From Streptomyces sp. CB01373 (lineage in GTDB: Bacteria > Actinomycetota > Actinomycetes > Streptomycetales > Streptomycetaceae): DNA of 64,000 nucleotides. The translations under genes were made by a program, and so were the position numbers. Positions within the stretch are counted from its first letter, which is position 1, and every line of letters begins with the position of its first letter. The stretch spans positions 372,001-436,000 of the forward strand of contig NZ_NNBK01000002.1 of assembly GCF_002803075.1 (NCBI RefSeq). The letters run 5' to 3'. This document shows, in pieces, positions 57,905-63,577 of the stretch. A model generated the notes under the pieces. It was given only the letters and a program-made list of their open reading frames with translations. It searched no databases and had not been told where the DNA came from.

Positions 57905-60900
57905 ATGGACCTCGTGCGCTATCGCATCCTCGGCACCACCCAGGCACTCCGCCCCGACGGCACCGCCGTTCCGCTCGGCGGGGCCCGGCTGCGTGCCCTG
58001 CTGACCGTGCTCGCCCTGCGACCCGGCCGTACGGTCCCGGTGCGCGCGCTCGTCGACGAGGTGTGGGACGGCGAGCCGCCCGCCGACGCCACCGGCGCGC
58101 TCCAGGCCCTGGTCGGGCGGCTGCGCCGGACGCTCGGCGCGGGCGCGGTGGCCTCGGCGGAGGGCGGCTACCGGCTCGCCGCCGCGACCGACGACGTCGA
58201 CCTGCACCGCTTCGAGCGGCTGGCCGGCGAGGGCCTGCGCGCGCTGAGCGACGGTGACCCGGCGAAGGCGGCCGCCGTCCTCGACGACGCTCTCGCGCTG
58301 TGGCGCGGCCCCGCCCTCGCCGACCTGCCCGACCGCACCGCCGAGGCGGCCCGCTGGGACACCCGCCACCTGGACGTGCGCCGCGCCCGCCTCACCGCCG
58401 CCCTCGCCCTCGGGCACGCCGAGCGGAGCCTGCCCGAGTTGACCGCGCTGTGCGACACGCACCCCCTGGACGAACCCCTCCAGACCCTCCGCCTGCGCGC
58501 CCTGCGCGACGCGGGCCGCACCGCCGAGGCCCTGGCCGCCTACGAGGACGTACGCCGGCTGCTGGCCGACCGCCTCGGCTCCGACCCCGGCCCGGAACTG
58601 CGCGCGCTGCACGCGGAACTGCTGCGGCCCACCGGCGGGACGCGGCCGGCGCCCGGCCTTGTCGCAGGCGGTGGGGGCTGGGCTGCTGAGCCCGCTTCCG
58701 GCGCGGCGTCCGGCCCGGGCGTGGCCCGGATCGCTGCGCCTGGTCCCGGTGCGGTGTCCGGTTCCGGTGCGGCATCCGGCCCCGCCACGGGCGGCGGGGC
58801 CCGGACCCCCGAGGCCGGTTCCGGTGCGGTGGCCGGGCCGCGTGCCGCGGGTGAGGCCGCCGTCCCCGCGGCGGTGCTCTCCCGCGTTGCTCCCTCGGCG
58901 GTACCCCTCGCCGGGCCCGATGCCGGTGTCCCGGACGGTGCCGCGGGCGAGGAGGTGGGCCCCGGTACGGCCGATGCCCGGCCCCCGAGCAACCTCCGCG
59001 CCCGGATCACCTCCTTCGTGGGCCGCGAGGCCGACATCGGGACGATCCGGGCCGACCTGGACGCCGCGCGTCTGGTGACGCTGCTCGGGCCGGGCGGGGC
59101 CGGGAAGACCCGGCTGTCGCAGGAGGCCGCCGAGGCCGTGCGGCCGGTGCCGCTGGACGGCGTGTGGCTGGCCGAGCTCGCCCCCGTCGACGACGCCGAG
59201 GCCGTGCCCGGGGCCGTGCTCACCGCCGTCGGCGCCCGCGAGACCGTGCTGTACGGCGCCGGTGCGGAGGAGATGCGGGCCGCCGTCGCCGACCGGCACA
59301 ACGACCCCGTCGAGCGGCTGGTCGAGCACTGCGCCAGGCGCCGCATGCTGCTCCTGCTCGACAACTGCGAGCACGTCGTCGACGCGGCGGCCCGCCTCGT
59401 CGAGGAGCTGCTGGCCCGTTGCCCGCACCTCACCGTCCTCGCCACCAGCCGGGAACCCCTCGGCATACCCGGCGAGGTGCTGCGGCCGGTCGAGCCCCTG
59501 CCCGACCCGGTGGCGCTGCGACTGTTCGCCGAACGCGGGGCCGCCGTACGGCCCGGCTTCCGCACCGACGCCGACCAGGAGACCGCGGACGCCTGCGCCG
59601 AGATCTGCCGGCGCCTGGACGGGCTGCCGCTGGCCATCGAACTCGCCGCCGCCCGGCTGCGGATGCTGACCCCGCGGCAGATCGCCGACCGGCTCGACGA
59701 CCGCTTCCGCCTGCTCACCTCGGGCAGCCGTACCGTCCTGCCCCGCCAGCAGACCCTGCGCGCCGTCGTCGACTGGTCCTGGGACCTGCTCGACGCCGAC
59801 GAACGGGACGTCCTGAGCCGGCTGTCCGTCTTCGCCGGCGGCTGCGACCTCGCCGCGGCCGAGGCCGTGTGCGGCCCCGCCGCCTTCGACGCCCTCGCCT
59901 CCCTCGTCGACAAGTCCCTCGTGGTGGCCGCCCCCGCCGCCGACGGCGGGATGCGCTACCGGCTGCTCGAGACCGTCGCCGAGTACGCGCGGGAACGGCT
60001 CGACGAGACCGGTGGCCGCACCGCGACCGAGCGCGCCCACCTGACGTACTACCGCGAACTGGCCCGCACCACCGAGCCGTTGATGCGCGGCTCCAGCCAG
60101 CGGGAGGCGATGGCCAGGATCGAGCTGGAGTACGAGAACCTGCGCACGGCGCTGCGTCACGCCGTCGCCGCACGCGACGAGCAGGAGGGCCTGTGCCTGA
60201 TCCTCTCGCTCGCCAACTACTGGCAGATGCGCGACATGCGCCTCGAGGCCCGCAACTGGTGCGCCGAGTTCATCGAGTTCGGCCCCGACCCCTTCACCGA
60301 GCCGGTCCGGCCCGCCGAACCCGTCTGGCAGCGGTGCACGGACGCCCCGCCCCCGATGACCGGCGAGGTGCTCGCCGAGGCCCGCCGGGGTCTGCACCTG
60401 GTCCATCTCTCCTGCATGGACACCGAGTTGGAGGCCTGGGAGTCGCCCGAGGCGAAACGGAAGCTGCGGCTCATCACCCAGGTCTACCAGCCCGGCCAGC
60501 CGCAGATCTGCCGCAGTCCCGGCATGCTCTGGATGTTCGCGGTGATGCTGACCGGCGAGGTGAAACGCCTGCTCGAGGTCACCGACGCCGCGGTACGCAC
60601 CTGCCGCGAGACCCCGGGATTCGAGTGGGAGCTGGCCCACGCCCTCCAGTGGCGCGCCAACCTGCTGGCCAACCGCACCGACTGGGCCGGGGACGCCGGC
60701 CGGGACGCCGACGAGTCGCTGGAGATCTTCCGCCGTCTCGACGACGCCTGGGGTACCGCCGAGGCACTCTCCGCGCGCGCGGAGGCCCATGAGCGCACCG
60801 GCGCCTACCTGTCGGCCGCGGCCGACTACCGGTCGGCCATCGACCACGCCGAACGCCTCGGCGCCGCCGCCCAGGTCACCGTCCTCACCGCCCGTCTGGG

Positions 60901-61498
60901 CAGCGCGCTGATGGAGTCGGGCGACACCGAACAGGGCGAACGGCTGCTGTGGGAGGTCGTCGAGCAGAGCCGGAACAGCCACAACGAGGCCATGCCCCCC
61001 GCCCGCCTCTACCTCGCCGGCCGACTGGGCATGACCGGACGCATCCCCGAGGCGCGCGAACAACTGCGTTTGCTGCGCGAGGAGTTCGGTATCTCGCACT
61101 TCGTCGTCTTCGACGCCTTCATCCTCGGTGCCGAGTCCTGGGTCGACGCGGTCGACGGCCTGTACGAGGACGCCCTGGACAAGGTCCGCCGGGCCCTCCA
61201 GCGCGCCCAGGACCCGCTGTCCGAGGCCATCGCGCCCCATATGCCCTCGGCGTACCTGACCATCGCCGCCAGGGCCCTCGCCGGCGTGGACGGCGGACGC
61301 CGGGCCCGGGACGCCGCCCGCTGCCTCGGAGCCGCCGACGCCCTGCTGCCGCCCCGCCACGTCGCCTCGGCCATGGAGCGCCACGTCCGCGACGAGGTCG
61401 TCGCGCTCACCCGGGAACTGCTCGGCGACGAGGCGTACGAGGCCGCGTACGCGGAGGGCGGCGGCCTCTCCGCGCAGGAGGCCGCCGCCCTGATCTGA
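57905..61498 (+). CDS. AfsR/SARP-family transcriptional regulator with NB-ARC ATPase and TPR-like domains
   Basis: A 1197-residue regulator; ATG 57905 (CCGGAGAC upstream). Residues 1-95 form the OmpR-type winged helix (VRYRILGTTQALRPDG ... VDEVWDGEPPADATGALQALVGRLR), residues 100-245 the BTAD domain (VDLHRFERLAGEGL ... PLDEPLQTLRLRALRDAGRTAEALAAYEDVR), 250-355 an Ala/Gly/Pro-rich linker, 365-650 an NB-ARC ATPase (LLGPGGAGKTRLSQEA Walker A, MLLLLDNCEHVVDA Walker B, HCARR), and the rest a helical TPR-like array. Such proteins activate secondary metabolism genes by binding 11-bp direct repeats. It converges on the ABC exporter operon whose promoter holds such repeats. Confidence 0.93.
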   Translation: MDLVRYRILGTTQALRPDGTAVPLGGARLRALLTVLALRPGRTVPVRALVDEVWDGEPPADATGALQALVGRLRRTLGAGAVASAEGGYRLAAATDDVDLHRFERLAGEGLRALSDGDPAKAAAVLDDALALWRGPALADLPDRTAEAARWDTRHLDVRRARLTAALALGHAERSLPELTALCDTHPLDEPLQTLRLRALRDAGRTAEALAAYEDVRRLLADRLGSDPGPELRALHAELLRPTGGTRPAPGLVAGGGGWAAEPASGAASGPGVARIAAPGPGAVSGSGAASGPATGGGARTPEAGSGAVAGPRAAGEAAVPAAVLSRVAPSAVPLAGPDAGVPDGAAGEEVGPGTADARPPSNLRARITSFVGREADIGTIRADLDAARLVTLLGPGGAGKTRLSQEAAEAVRPVPLDGVWLAELAPVDDAEAVPGAVLTAVGARETVLYGAGAEEMRAAVADRHNDPVERLVEHCARRRMLLLLDNCEHVVDAAARLVEELLARCPHLTVLATSREPLGIPGEVLRPVEPLPDPVALRLFAERGAAVRPGFRTDADQETADACAEICRRLDGLPLAIELAAARLRMLTPRQIADRLDDRFRLLTSGSRTVLPRQQTLRAVVDWSWDLLDADERDVLSRLSVFAGGCDLAAAEAVCGPAAFDALASLVDKSLVVAAPAADGGMRYRLLETVAEYARERLDETGGRTATERAHLTYYRELARTTEPLMRGSSQREAMARIELEYENLRTALRHAVAARDEQEGLCLILSLANYWQMRDMRLEARNWCAEFIEFGPDPFTEPVRPAEPVWQRCTDAPPPMTGEVLAEARRGLHLVHLSCMDTELEAWESPEAKRKLRLITQVYQPGQPQICRSPGMLWMFAVMLTGEVKRLLEVTDAAVRTCRETPGFEWELAHALQWRANLLANRTDWAGDAGRDADESLEIFRRLDDAWGTAEALSARAEAHERTGAYLSAAADYRSAIDHAERLGAAAQVTVLTARLGSALMESGDTEQGERLLWEVVEQSRNSHNEAMPPARLYLAGRLGMTGRIPEAREQLRLLREEFGISHFVVFDAFILGAESWVDAVDGLYEDALDKVRRALQRAQDPLSEAIAPHMPSAYLTIAARALAGVDGGRRARDAARCLGAADALLPPRHVASAMERHVRDEVVALTRELLGDEAYEAAYAEGGGLSAQEAAALI

Positions 61499-61523: not shown

Positions 61524-62354
61524 TCAGCTCTTCGTACGGAACTTGTGGATCGCGATCGGTGCCATCACCACCGTGATCCCCGCCGACCAGGCCAGCGTCA
61601 ACCACATGCTGTGCGCCACCGGGCCGCCCACCATCAACCCTCGGGCGCTGTCCGCGAGGGCGGACAGCGGGTTGTACTCGGTGAAGTTCCGCAGCCATCC
61701 CGGCATCGTCCCGGGCGGTGCGAAGATGGACGAGCCGAACTGGAGCGGCATCAGCACCAGGAAGCCCATCGCCTGCACGGACTGCGCGTTCTTCATCACC
61801 ACGCCGAGCGTGAGGAACACCCACATCAGCGCCGAGCCGAACACCGCCGACAGCCCCACGGCGGCGAACAGGCCTGGCCAGTTCTCGATCTCGAAGCCCA
61901 CGAGGACGCCGACGACCAGCAGGACGGCCGTCGCGATCATCATCCGCAGCAGCTCCACCGAGATCTTGGCGAACAGCACCGAGCCGCGCCCGATCGGCAG
62001 GGACCGGAAGCGGTCCATGACACCGGAGTTGAAGTCCGTGTTGAAGCCGGTGCCCACGCTCTGGGCCAGGTTCATGCCCATCATGGCCATCAGGCCGGGC
62101 ACGATGTACTGCACGTACTGCTGCTGCCCGCCGCCCAGCGACTGCCCGATCGAGCCGCCGAAGACGTACACGAACAGCAGCGTGAAGATCACCGGGAACA
62201 GGATCGCGTCGAACATCGATTCCGGGTCCTGCCGTATCCACAGCAGGTTGCGGCGGACCAGCGCGCCGGTGTGCCGCAGATGGCTGCGCAGCGGGATCCG
62301 GGCATCGGCCTTGAGGCCGGGGGAGCCCAGAGGGGTTGTGGTGACGGCGCTCAT
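61524..62354 (-). CDS. ABC-2 type drug exporter permease (DrrB-like)
   Basis: A 276-residue permease with six helices. The ABC-2 motif GVMDRFRSLPIGRGSVLFAKI (the E-loop region) and MPLQFGSSIFAPPGTMPGWLRNFTEYNPLS (the FAPxxxMPxWL motif) are characteristic of the DrrB/OleC5-like group exporting antibiotics. The ATG overlaps the ATPase stop by 4 bp. It ends 25 bp from the regulator's stop, convergent. Confidence 0.92.
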   Translation of the reverse strand: MSAVTTTPLGSPGLKADARIPLRSHLRHTGALVRRNLLWIRQDPESMFDAILFPVIFTLLFVYVFGGSIGQSLGGGQQQYVQYIVPGLMAMMGMNLAQSVGTGFNTDFNSGVMDRFRSLPIGRGSVLFAKISVELLRMMIATAVLLVVGVLVGFEIENWPGLFAAVGLSAVFGSALMWVFLTLGVVMKNAQSVQAMGFLVLMPLQFGSSIFAPPGTMPGWLRNFTEYNPLSALADSARGLMVGGPVAHSMWLTLAWSAGITVVMAPIAIHKFRTKS

Positions 62355-63376
62355 GCGGCGACCTCTTCGCGGATGTCGGCGGGCACGGTGTCCTGCGGGG
62401 CACTGGCGCGGTGGCCGGTGAGGGACAGGAACACCTCGTCCAGGCTGGGCAGTTCGGTGGTGATGGAGCTGATCGTGATGCCGCGCGCGGTGACCGCGCC
62501 GACCACGGCGGTCAGTTGCTCGTCGCTGAGGATCGGTACGAGCAGGGAGCCGGTCGCGGTGTCGACGGTTGTCGCGGCGAGCCCGGTGATGCCCAGTTCG
62601 TCGAGCATCCCGGCCAGCGGGCGCACTTCGAGCGGGTCGGCCGGCTTCACGCGCAGGGTGCGCCCGCCGACCTTCGCCTTCAGCTCCTCGATGCCGCCGT
62701 TCGCGATGACCTTGCCGCGGTCGACGACGGTCAGTTCGGAGGCGAGCTGTTCGGCCTCCTCCATGTACTGGGTGGTCAGCAGGACGGTGACCCCGTCGCC
62801 GACCATCGTCTTGACCTCGTCCCACACCTCGTTGCGGGTACGGGGGTCGAGGCCCGTGGTGGGCTCGTCCAGGAAGAGGACGGCGGGCCGCCCGATCATC
62901 GAGGCGGCGAGGTCGAGCCGCCGCCGCATGCCGCCGGAGTAGGTGCGGGCCGGCCGCCGCGCGGCCTCGGTGAGCGAGAACCGCTCCAGCAGCTCGTCGG
63001 CGCGGGCGCGGGCCTCCTTGCGGGGCAGGTCGAGCAGCCGGCCGATCAGGTAGAGGTTCTCCCAGCCGGGGAGCTTCTCGTCCACGGAGGCGTACTGCCC
63101 GGTCAGCCCGATCACCCGGCGCAGCTGCCGGGGCTGCCGTGCCACGTCGTAGCCCGCCACGGTGGCCTGTCCCGCGTCCGGGGCGAGCAGCGTGGACAGG
63201 ATGCGTACGAGGGTGGTCTTGCCGGCTCCGTTCGGCCCGAGCACGCCCATCACGGTGCCCTCGCGCACGTCCAGGTCCACGCCGTCCAGTGCCTTGGTCT
63301 CGCCGTAGTGCTTGACCAGCCCCCGCACGGTCACGGCGTTCGGCACGCCGCCGGGGTTGTCGTCGATTCGCGTCAT
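62351..63376 (-). CDS. Daunorubicin-resistance-type ABC exporter ATPase (DrrA-like)
   Basis: A 341-residue ATPase starting MTRIDDNPGGVPNAVTVRGL at 63376. Walker A GPNGAGKTTLVRIL, signature RTYSGGMRRRLDLAASM, Walker B AVLFLDEPTTGLDPRTRNE and H-loop LLTTQYMEEAEQLA are all present. The C-terminal about 90 residues (LEVRPLAGMLDELGI ... ITTELPSLDEVFLSLTGH) match the DrrA-specific domain. Its start codon lies 7 nt after CACTGT, a -10-like hexamer, beneath three 11-bp repeats. It exports an unknown hydrophobic compound with its permease. Confidence 0.93.
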   Translation of the reverse strand: MTRIDDNPGGVPNAVTVRGLVKHYGETKALDGVDLDVREGTVMGVLGPNGAGKTTLVRILSTLLAPDAGQATVAGYDVARQPRQLRRVIGLTGQYASVDEKLPGWENLYLIGRLLDLPRKEARARADELLERFSLTEAARRPARTYSGGMRRRLDLAASMIGRPAVLFLDEPTTGLDPRTRNEVWDEVKTMVGDGVTVLLTTQYMEEAEQLASELTVVDRGKVIANGGIEELKAKVGGRTLRVKPADPLEVRPLAGMLDELGITGLAATTVDTATGSLLVPILSDEQLTAVVGAVTARGITISSITTELPSLDEVFLSLTGHRASAPQDTVPADIREEVAA

Positions 63377-63383
63377 GCCCCGA

Positions 63384-63427
63384 ACAGTGCCAGCCCCCAC
63401 CGACAAACCACCGACAGTCCACCGACA
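63384..63427 (-). promoter_or_regulatory. Candidate SARP operator: three 11-bp direct repeats plus -10
   Basis: On the minus strand TGTCGGTGG occurs three times (63427-63419, 63416-63408, 63405-63397) with an exact 11-bp period. Nine nt after the last heptamer TGTCGGT comes CACTGT (63389-63384), a possible -10, and then 7 nt to the ATG. Repeats overlapping the -35 position about 8 bp from the -10 are the known SARP arrangement. Confidence 0.7.
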
Positions 63428-63539
63428 GACGGCACCGGGCGCCGACATGTCCCCGACGAGCACCGCAACCATCGATTGAGGAACCACGACGGTGAGCAAC
63501 CACCTCCGCGAGAGCGGCGCCGGGTCAGGCGCAAAAACC

Positions 63540-63577
63540 GGCAGCCCCGCCGACGGGGGAAGATCGGCGGGGCTGCC
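63540..63577 (-). terminator. Rho-independent terminator of panB
   Basis: GGCAGCCCCGCCGA (63540-63553) and TCGGCGGGGCTGCC (63564-63577) form a perfect 14-bp stem, 10-nt loop; on the minus strand it is followed by GGTTTTTGCG. Confidence 0.92.

What the first reader, a model, noticed from the sequence alone, without database searches (positions are those of the whole stretch)
61524..63430. Three 11-bp-spaced repeats under a DrrAB-like exporter next to a SARP/AfsR-type regulator
Seen: TGTCGGTGG occurs three times with exact 11-bp period just upstream of the exporter ATPase, then 9 nt to CACTGT and 7 nt to the ATG. Known: SARP-family activators bind direct repeats of 11-bp period overlapping the -35, about 8 bp from the -10. 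The neighbouring convergent gene (57905-61498) encodes an AfsR/SARP-type regulator with NB-ARC and TPR-like domains. Inference: it activates the exporter, forming a self-contained sensing-and-export module outside any obvious biosynthetic cluster.
Basis: partly seen in the sequence, partly recalled or inferred. Interest (0 to 1): 0.75.

Follow-up and report, generated by a model that had tools for sequence, protein, structure and literature searches.

The report
Regulator-pump module with repeated promoter words
In this bacterium and the Streptomyces relatives examined, three evenly spaced copies of a short DNA word stand in front of a predicted drug-pump gene, where the regulator encoded next door likely binds and switches the pump on, and in some relatives the same words also stand before genes for enzymes that resemble antibiotic-destroying ones.

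Summary
The repeats are real: TGTCGGTGG occurs three times with exact 11-bp period, the only three-copy 9-mer at any period of 8-24 bp in the window. A fourth TGTCGG lies 20 bp upstream. Orthologous Streptomyces exporter promoters keep the period and the spacing to the ATG: three repeats 28/29 nt before the ATG in 78 of 78 usable named loci (of 80) and in 31 of 32 loci that a strict pattern had missed; 0 of 22,200 shuffles. The register to the -10 equals that of the AfsR box in its cryo-EM complex (PMC10936776). Regulator and exporter are kept or lost together (116 both, 9 neither, 6 one only, of 131 genomes). The window's genome holds one such site. Activation by the neighbour is thus well supported, but binding was not measured. 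"Self-contained" is not general: the operator also precedes FAD monooxygenases resembling Tet(X) or rifampin monooxygenase in relatives, some on plasmids. Some paralogous regulators face a siderophore-interacting-protein gene with similar repeats. The exporter mRNA is predicted leaderless. Best reading: an AfsR-type STAND regulator of a detoxification regulon; its signal is unknown.

The parts
57905..61498 (+). large SARP-type regulator: OmpR-type DNA-binding domain, BTAD, STAND-type ATPase domain, long C-terminal half (ORF open from GTG 57887)
   Evidence: Pfam Trans_reg_C 35-85, BTAD 104-246, AAA_16 377-511; phmmer match of residues 7-247 to AfsR chains, best E 2.1e-35
61524..62354 (-). ABC-2 type exporter permease
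   Evidence: Pfam ABC2_membrane 102.2 bits; below the TIGR01247 drrB cutoff
62351..63376 (-). exporter ATPase, DrrA subfamily, likely translated from a leaderless mRNA
   Evidence: TIGR01188 403.9 bits, cutoff 312.45; ATG 7 nt after the -10
63397..63405 (-). proximal repeat TGTCGGTGG (-28 to -20 if CACTGT is -12 to -7)
   Evidence: conserved in orthologues
63408..63416 (-). middle repeat TGTCGGTGG (-39 to -31)
   Evidence: conserved in orthologues
63419..63427 (-). distal repeat TGTCGGTGG (-50 to -42)
   Evidence: conserved in orthologues
63439..63447 (-). fourth, imperfect copy TGTCGGCGC, 20 bp above the distal repeat
   Evidence: upstream copies are frequent in orthologues, most at 31-34, 42-45 and 52-56 bp from the proximal one
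63384..63392 (-). extended -10 element TGG-CACTGT; no TTGACA-like hexamer 17-18 bp above it
   Evidence: sequence; T, G, A and the last T are fixed in 74, 76, 72 and 76 of 76 aligned promoters
63540..63577 (-). hairpin followed by a T run between panB and the exporter, likely the panB terminator
   Evidence: sequence and fold

Best explanation
The three TGTCGGTGG copies are a conserved promoter element at which the neighbouring large SARP regulator likely binds as side-by-side protomers and activates the convergent exporter operon, predicted to be of DrrAB type and leaderless. Two protomers would sit on the middle and proximal repeats (-40 to -19), over the -35 position, and hold sigma region 4 there, as AfsR does; further copies upstream would take additional protomers. 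The extended -10 without a recognisable -35 fits a promoter that needs such help. The C-terminal STAND ATPase half would hold the regulator off until a toxic compound or metabolite is sensed. In relatives the same operator is attached to FAD monooxygenases resembling Tet(X) or rifampin monooxygenase, so the regulon likely combines export with chemical inactivation. Shown by sequence: the repeats, their conservation, their register, the co-occurrence and the shared operator. Inferred: binding, activation, signal and substrate.
For: Three repeats at fixed distance from the ATG in 78 of 78 usable named promoters (of 80) and 31 of 32 pattern-missed ones, 0 of 22,200 shuffles. Same register to the -10 as the AfsR box at -40 to -19 (PMC10936776). 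Composite promoter in 63 of 131 genus genomes, reversed control 0 of 131; all 30 fetched matches front the exporter. Regulator and ATPase: 116 both, 9 neither, 2 and 4 single, of 131. DNA-contact residues W74, P79, R92, R94 of AfsR kept; recognition helix nearly invariant in 65 orthologues. One site in the own genome at up to 1 mismatch, control 0. Same operator before monooxygenases in 9 of 392 genomes, control 0, all 9 with the regulator. Paralogous regulators converge on a SIP gene with similar repeats in 5 of 8 loci, three of them within 2 mismatches of 18.
Against: No binding, expression or start-site data. AfsR residues T88 and Q48, conserved in many SARPs, are A and R here. The 2 x 2 association is between neighbouring genes and ignores relatedness, so linked inheritance alone would give it. 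G069 keeps the operator although its regulator gene has lost its middle. In the diverged group the -10 is less clear (for example TCCCAT). Twenty of 69 monooxygenase upstreams carry a palindrome instead of the repeats, and the window's own genome has no such monooxygenase at E 1e-100. TPR repeats were not detected by Pfam.
Confidence: 0.8

Rival explanations
1. The repeats are bound by a different regulator (another SARP or an unrelated protein), and the adjacent large SARP acts elsewhere.
For: Streptomyces genomes hold several SARPs; regulator paralogues with a similar helix exist in some genomes. G069 keeps the operator with a broken regulator gene. Linkage explains co-occurrence.
Against: Regulator and exporter are missing together in 9 of 131 genomes and single in 6, of which three are cut by contig ends next to or inside the regulator (G028, G126, G136). 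Paralogues sit beside their own repeat-bearing target. All 9 genomes hold this regulator. The geometry is that of a SARP box.
Confidence: 0.13
2. The SARP binds the repeats but represses the exporter until the signal arrives.
For: A review describes a SARP, Atr32, as a negative regulator (PMC10972967, passage).
Against: The repeats end upstream of the -10, in the AfsR activation register, and do not cover -10 or start; no TTGACA-like -35 is seen.
Confidence: 0.04
3. The repeats are a by-product of sequence duplication next to the panB terminator, without regulatory function.
For: In 18 of 33 loci of the second promoter set the hairpin's 3' arm reads TCGGCGGGCTGTC and runs towards the array; the number of upstream copies varies.
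Against: The two proximal copies keep sequence and distance to the ATG in all promoters scored, while sequence above the array is poorly kept. Monooxygenase promoters at other places carry the same kind of array.
Confidence: 0.03

Closest known systems
AfsR on the afsS promoter, Streptomyces coelicolor (PMC10936776, sections 6, 7 and 9 read)
   Same: SARP + ATPase architecture; 11-bp direct repeats at -40 to -19 over the -35; many DNA-contact residues
   Different: Not the AfsR equivalog (189 of 1430 bits); three or more repeats of another sequence; target is a neighbouring exporter; T88 and Q48 differ
Cluster-situated SARPs such as OtcR of the oxytetracycline cluster (PMC4393881, passages)
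   Same: 9-nt direct repeats at 11-bp steps, the 3' repeat about 8 bp from the -10; OtcR is encoded next to an efflux gene (otrB)
   Different: OtcR activates biosynthetic genes of its cluster; here panB and ordinary metabolic genes flank the pair and the likely target is the exporter
PimR, a SARP-LAL of pimaricin synthesis (PMC10972967, passages)
   Same: Three repeats at 11-bp steps, with a secondary site at 10-bp steps as in some upstream arrays here (L059)
   Different: LAL-type C-terminus, per the review; PimR drives a biosynthetic regulator; its site does not overlap the -35
DrrAB and OtrC drug exporters
   Same: ATPase passes the drrA subfamily cutoff
   Different: OtrC and drrB cutoffs not reached; substrate unknown
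Tet(X) and rifampin monooxygenase (second targets in relatives)
   Same: FAD_binding_3 fold; these are the best NCBIfam models
   Different: Far below the curated cutoffs (129 and 124 of 750; 319 of 800); the closest solved chain of the first kind is AbsH3; activity unknown

Membership tests
SARP family, large STAND type | N-terminal OmpR-type DNA-binding domain followed by BTAD | tested here: met
   Trans_reg_C 31.1 bits (cutoff 26.2), BTAD 142.5 bits (cutoff 22.1)
SARP family, large STAND type | NOD/STAND ATPase domain | tested here: met
   AAA_16 34.2 bits, cutoff 32.6; P-loop GPGGAGKT in the sequence
SARP family, large STAND type | C-terminal TPR domain | tested here: inconclusive
   No TPR family at E 1e-3 in Pfam; only weak NCBIfam matches to TPR-bearing proteins below cutoff
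SARP family, large STAND type | Target site of 11-bp direct repeats over the -35, about 8 bp before the -10 | tested here: met
   Sequence and conservation: 11-bp steps, 7 nt between the last TGTCGGTGG and the -10
SARP family, large STAND type | DNA-contact residues of AfsR (Q48, W74, P79, T88, R94, K95) | tested here: inconclusive
   W74, P79, R94 kept, K95 is R, Q48 is R, T88 is A
SARP family, large STAND type | Binds the repeats and activates transcription | not testable with these tools
   needs EMSA, footprint or transcription assay
AfsR equivalog | NF053617 score at or above cutoff | tested here: not met
   189.1 against 1430 bits
DrrA subfamily ATPase | TIGR01188 score at or above cutoff | tested here: met
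   403.9 against 312.45 bits
DrrB subfamily permease | TIGR01247 score at or above cutoff | tested here: not met
   53.9 against 223.05 bits
OtrC oxytetracycline exporter ATPase | NF000106 score at or above cutoff | tested here: not met
   415.1 against 750 bits
Tet(X) (second targets in relatives) | NF033111 score at or above cutoff | tested here: not met
   128.9 and 124.0 against 750 bits, 2 proteins scanned
Rifampin monooxygenase (second target in G086) | NF033145 score at or above cutoff | tested here: not met
   319 against 800 bits; protein cut by the end of the fetched stretch

The most novel reading that the evidence does not exclude
This SARP is the chromosomal hub of a genus-wide chemical-defence regulon: a STAND sensor that switches on a leaderless exporter, and into which chromosomal and plasmid-borne detoxifying monooxygenases plug simply by carrying its 11-bp-repeat operator, exchanging it with a palindromic (TetR-type) operator in evolution. 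A sister SARP runs a parallel module with a siderophore-interacting flavoprotein. SARPs would then be sensors of toxic compounds as well as activators of antibiotic synthesis.
Probability: 0.45. Interest if true: 0.75.

Novelty: new variant of a known kind. Interest (0 to 1): 0.6.

Why it matters
SARPs are known as activators of antibiotic biosynthesis. A SARP found in 118 of 131 genus genomes, with one strong site in the window's genome and facing an exporter, would be a simple system for asking what a STAND-SARP senses. The operator is easy to recognise, so it gives a testable regulon in related species, including plasmid-borne enzymes of families that also hold antibiotic-inactivating members. 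The natural set of promoters with three to six repeats, and the sister SARP-SIP pairs, give material for reading the SARP recognition code.

Tried and rejected
Chance origin of the repeats: rejected. Autoregulation by the same operator: not seen, 0 of 64 regulator upstreams (350 nt, of 80 loci) with tandem TGTMGG. Other strong targets in the window's genome: none at up to 1 mismatch of the composite; with a plain two-repeat pattern, 16 hits at 3 mismatches against 12 for the reversed control. Anti-phage STAND protein: no PADLOC match. AfsR orthology: rejected. Presence outside the genus: none in the four other genera of the order in that sample (12 such genomes listed, 3 more not listed). Operator type at the monooxygenases, one old split or many swaps: the tree of 35 rows needs about 6 changes of label, but well-supported branches force only 1, so exchange is likely, not proven.

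Literature: the locus tags SCO2256-SCO2259, recalled by me as the S. coelicolor counterpart and not checked, gave no paper (SCO2259) and one listing for SCO2256 only, not opened. TGTCGGTGG with Streptomyces gave 4 listings, none on this by title. Searches with SARP plus exporter, monooxygenase, leaderless, BTAD, efflux or resistance terms listed no paper on this module by title; they were listings of the best rows only and cover open-licence PMC text alone. Opened: PMC10936776 (outline, sections 6, 7, 9); passages only of PMC10972967, PMC8780764 and PMC4393881.

Full report
Observation. The window's minus strand reads CTGTCGGTGGA CTGTCGGTGGT TTGTCGGTGGG GGCTGG CACTGT TCGGGGC ATG. The three TGTCGGTGG copies (63419-63427, 63408-63416, 63397-63405) are the only three-copy 9-mer at any fixed period of 8-24 bp in 64 kb, and 30 Markov simulations had none at period 11. 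A fourth TGTCGG starts at 63447. The spacer to CACTGT is 7 nt, not 9.

Genes. The regulator (57887 or 57905 to 61498, +) has Trans_reg_C, BTAD and AAA_16 domains, and residues 7-247 match AfsR chains. The exporter is an ATPase (62351-63376) of the DrrA subfamily and an ABC-2 permease (61524-62354), overlapping by 4 nt. Upstream on the same strand is panB (ketopantoate hydroxymethyltransferase, cut by the window end), then a hairpin with a T run at 63577-63540. Of seven other ORFs scanned, panB included, an M24 peptidase and an F420-type oxidoreductase were the only further matches. I saw no biosynthetic cluster genes beside the module; the rest of the window was not annotated.

Conservation. 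A search with the regulator kept the best 80 loci, all named Streptomyces. All 80 hold the exporter ATPase and permease on the opposite strand behind the regulator. Aligned on the proximal repeat (76 of 81 promoters, window included; 5 dropped through script errors), the repeat cores, TG and the A and last T of the -10 are nearly fixed, and the ATG follows the proximal repeat start by 29 nt (69) or 28 nt (7). With the start codon set without regard to the repeats, 78 of 78 usable named promoters have three repeats (at most 3 of 18 mismatches) at 28/29 nt; other offsets gave 23 of 8,268, and shuffles of both promoter sets 0 of 22,200. These loci were picked by similarity to the regulator, so I also fetched 39 stretches, nearly all from genomes that the strict promoter pattern had missed. 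Thirty-three hold the ATPase, one of them pattern-positive (L184). Of the other 32, all have the two proximal repeats (at most 2 of 12 mismatches) and 31 have three. In this more diverged group the -10 is often less clear. Further copies upstream are common, mostly 31-34, 42-45 and 52-56 bp from the proximal one, roughly on one face of the helix.

Distribution. In 131 genus genomes (unnamed) the composite pattern (three repeats + extended -10) occurs in 63, the reversed control in 0. The 30 fetched matches all front the exporter. Two genomes, G086 and G133, have a second match, before a monooxygenase. The regulator's C-terminal piece is found in 118 (E 1e-20), the exporter ATPase in 120 (E 1e-135), both in 116, neither in 9 (Fisher p 1.6e-9, with no correction for linkage or relatedness). 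Of the six single cases, G028 and G126 are cut by a contig end inside the regulator and G136 just behind the permease; G103 has its ATPase in two frames; G081 lacks the ATPase and keeps pieces of permease and regulator; G069 has a regulator gene that appears to have lost its middle beside an intact operator. The piece was not found in the four other genera of the order that were sampled.

Own genome. Two repeats plus extended -10, up to 1 mismatch: one site in 7.88 Mb, reversed control 0. The regulator's own promoters carry no tandem repeats (0 of 64).

Mechanism. PMC10936776 (sections read) shows two AfsR SARP protomers side by side on 11-bp repeats at -40 to -30 and -29 to -19, one per repeat, with sigma region 4 on top of them, and the NOD and TPR parts inhibiting until ATP binds. 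If CACTGT here is -12 to -7, the middle and proximal 11-bp units fall exactly on those two places and the distal repeat is a third unit above. W74, P79, R92 and R94 of AfsR are kept, K95 is R, and T88 and Q48 differ (A and R). The helix GALQALVGRLRR is nearly invariant in 65 orthologues, which fits a different but stable recognition sequence. With 7 nt between -10 and ATG the mRNA is predicted leaderless; about 22% of mRNAs are so in S. avermitilis (PMC8780764, passages). Binding and activation are inference.

Second targets. A pattern with two repeats and a leadered start hit 9 of 392 genus genomes (10 places), control 0. In 8 genomes the gene encodes one kind of FAD monooxygenase (translations); the two of these scanned have Tet(X) as best NCBIfam model. 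In G086 it is a rifampin-monooxygenase-like enzyme behind a similar promoter. Scores are far below the curated cutoffs, and the nearest solved chain of the first kind is AbsH3. All 9 genomes have the regulator, which is weak evidence as the regulator is common. The first kind occurs in 184 of 382 genomes at E 1e-100 (at most 5 candidates scored per genome), not in the window's own. Of 69 upstream stretches (70 taken, one misplaced; the best hits and others that I chose, not random), 45 carry a repeat triple only, 20 a TGGAACNNNGTTCCA palindrome only, 2 both, 2 neither; of 6,900 shuffles 3 had the triple and 43 the palindrome. Calling the palindrome TetR-type is recalled knowledge: two plasmid copies without repeats have a TetR gene beside them, but so has one copy with repeats. 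On plasmids, 9 of 14 examined copies (of 15 listed) have a triple within 3 mismatches, one of them (L320) far upstream and weak. No plasmid record holds 80% of the regulator (0 of 512 with any match). One repeat-bearing copy lies on a 316,404-bp plasmid of Streptomyces sp. NBC_01237. Contig C3 of G019 has the same length and the same gene, and the large contig C1 of G019 has regulator, exporter and operator.

Sister module. Eight loci around regulator paralogues were read. Five have a siderophore-interacting-protein gene converging on the paralogue, with triples upstream at 1, 2, 2, 4 and 4 mismatches of 18. The two at 4 may be chance, as no shuffles were run. Three loci have no such gene (Pfam SIP for one protein). 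In four paralogues the helix ALQALVGRLRR was read off; in the others my script did not return it. This repeats the architecture with another target.

Verdict. The repeats are real and under strong constraint, and activation by the neighbour is well supported but unmeasured. What is new is the genus-wide fixed module, the predicted leaderless exporter, and an operator shared with movable detoxification-type enzymes.

Noticed in passing
L166, L172, L176, L186 and others of L165-L203: In 18 of 33 loci the hairpin behind panB has a 3' arm reading TCGGCGGGCTGTC, so the terminator arm itself looks like distal operator repeats: one stretch may serve as terminator and operator.
   Followed up: partly
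L248-L310, L312-L317: Upstreams of one FAD monooxygenase family fall into two nearly exclusive kinds, 11-bp direct repeats or a TGGAACNNNGTTCCA palindrome (45, 20, both 2, neither 2, of 69), suggesting operator exchange between two regulators.
   Followed up: partly
L209, L210, L211, L212, L215: Paralogous large SARPs converge on a siderophore-interacting-protein gene with TGTCGG-like 11-bp repeats upstream, clearest in L215 near 7962 on the minus strand.
   Followed up: partly
L018, L044, L059, L068: Some exporter promoters carry longer arrays, such as six units in register in L018, or upstream units at 10-bp steps in L059.
   Followed up: no
L184 (G069): The regulator gene appears to have lost most of its middle while exporter and operator look intact; a monooxygenase upstream in the same genome also keeps repeats.
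   Followed up: no
L236 (G086): A rifampin-monooxygenase-like enzyme stands behind a promoter and leader similar to those of the Tet(X)-like genes, as if the enzyme had been swapped under one promoter.
   Followed up: partly
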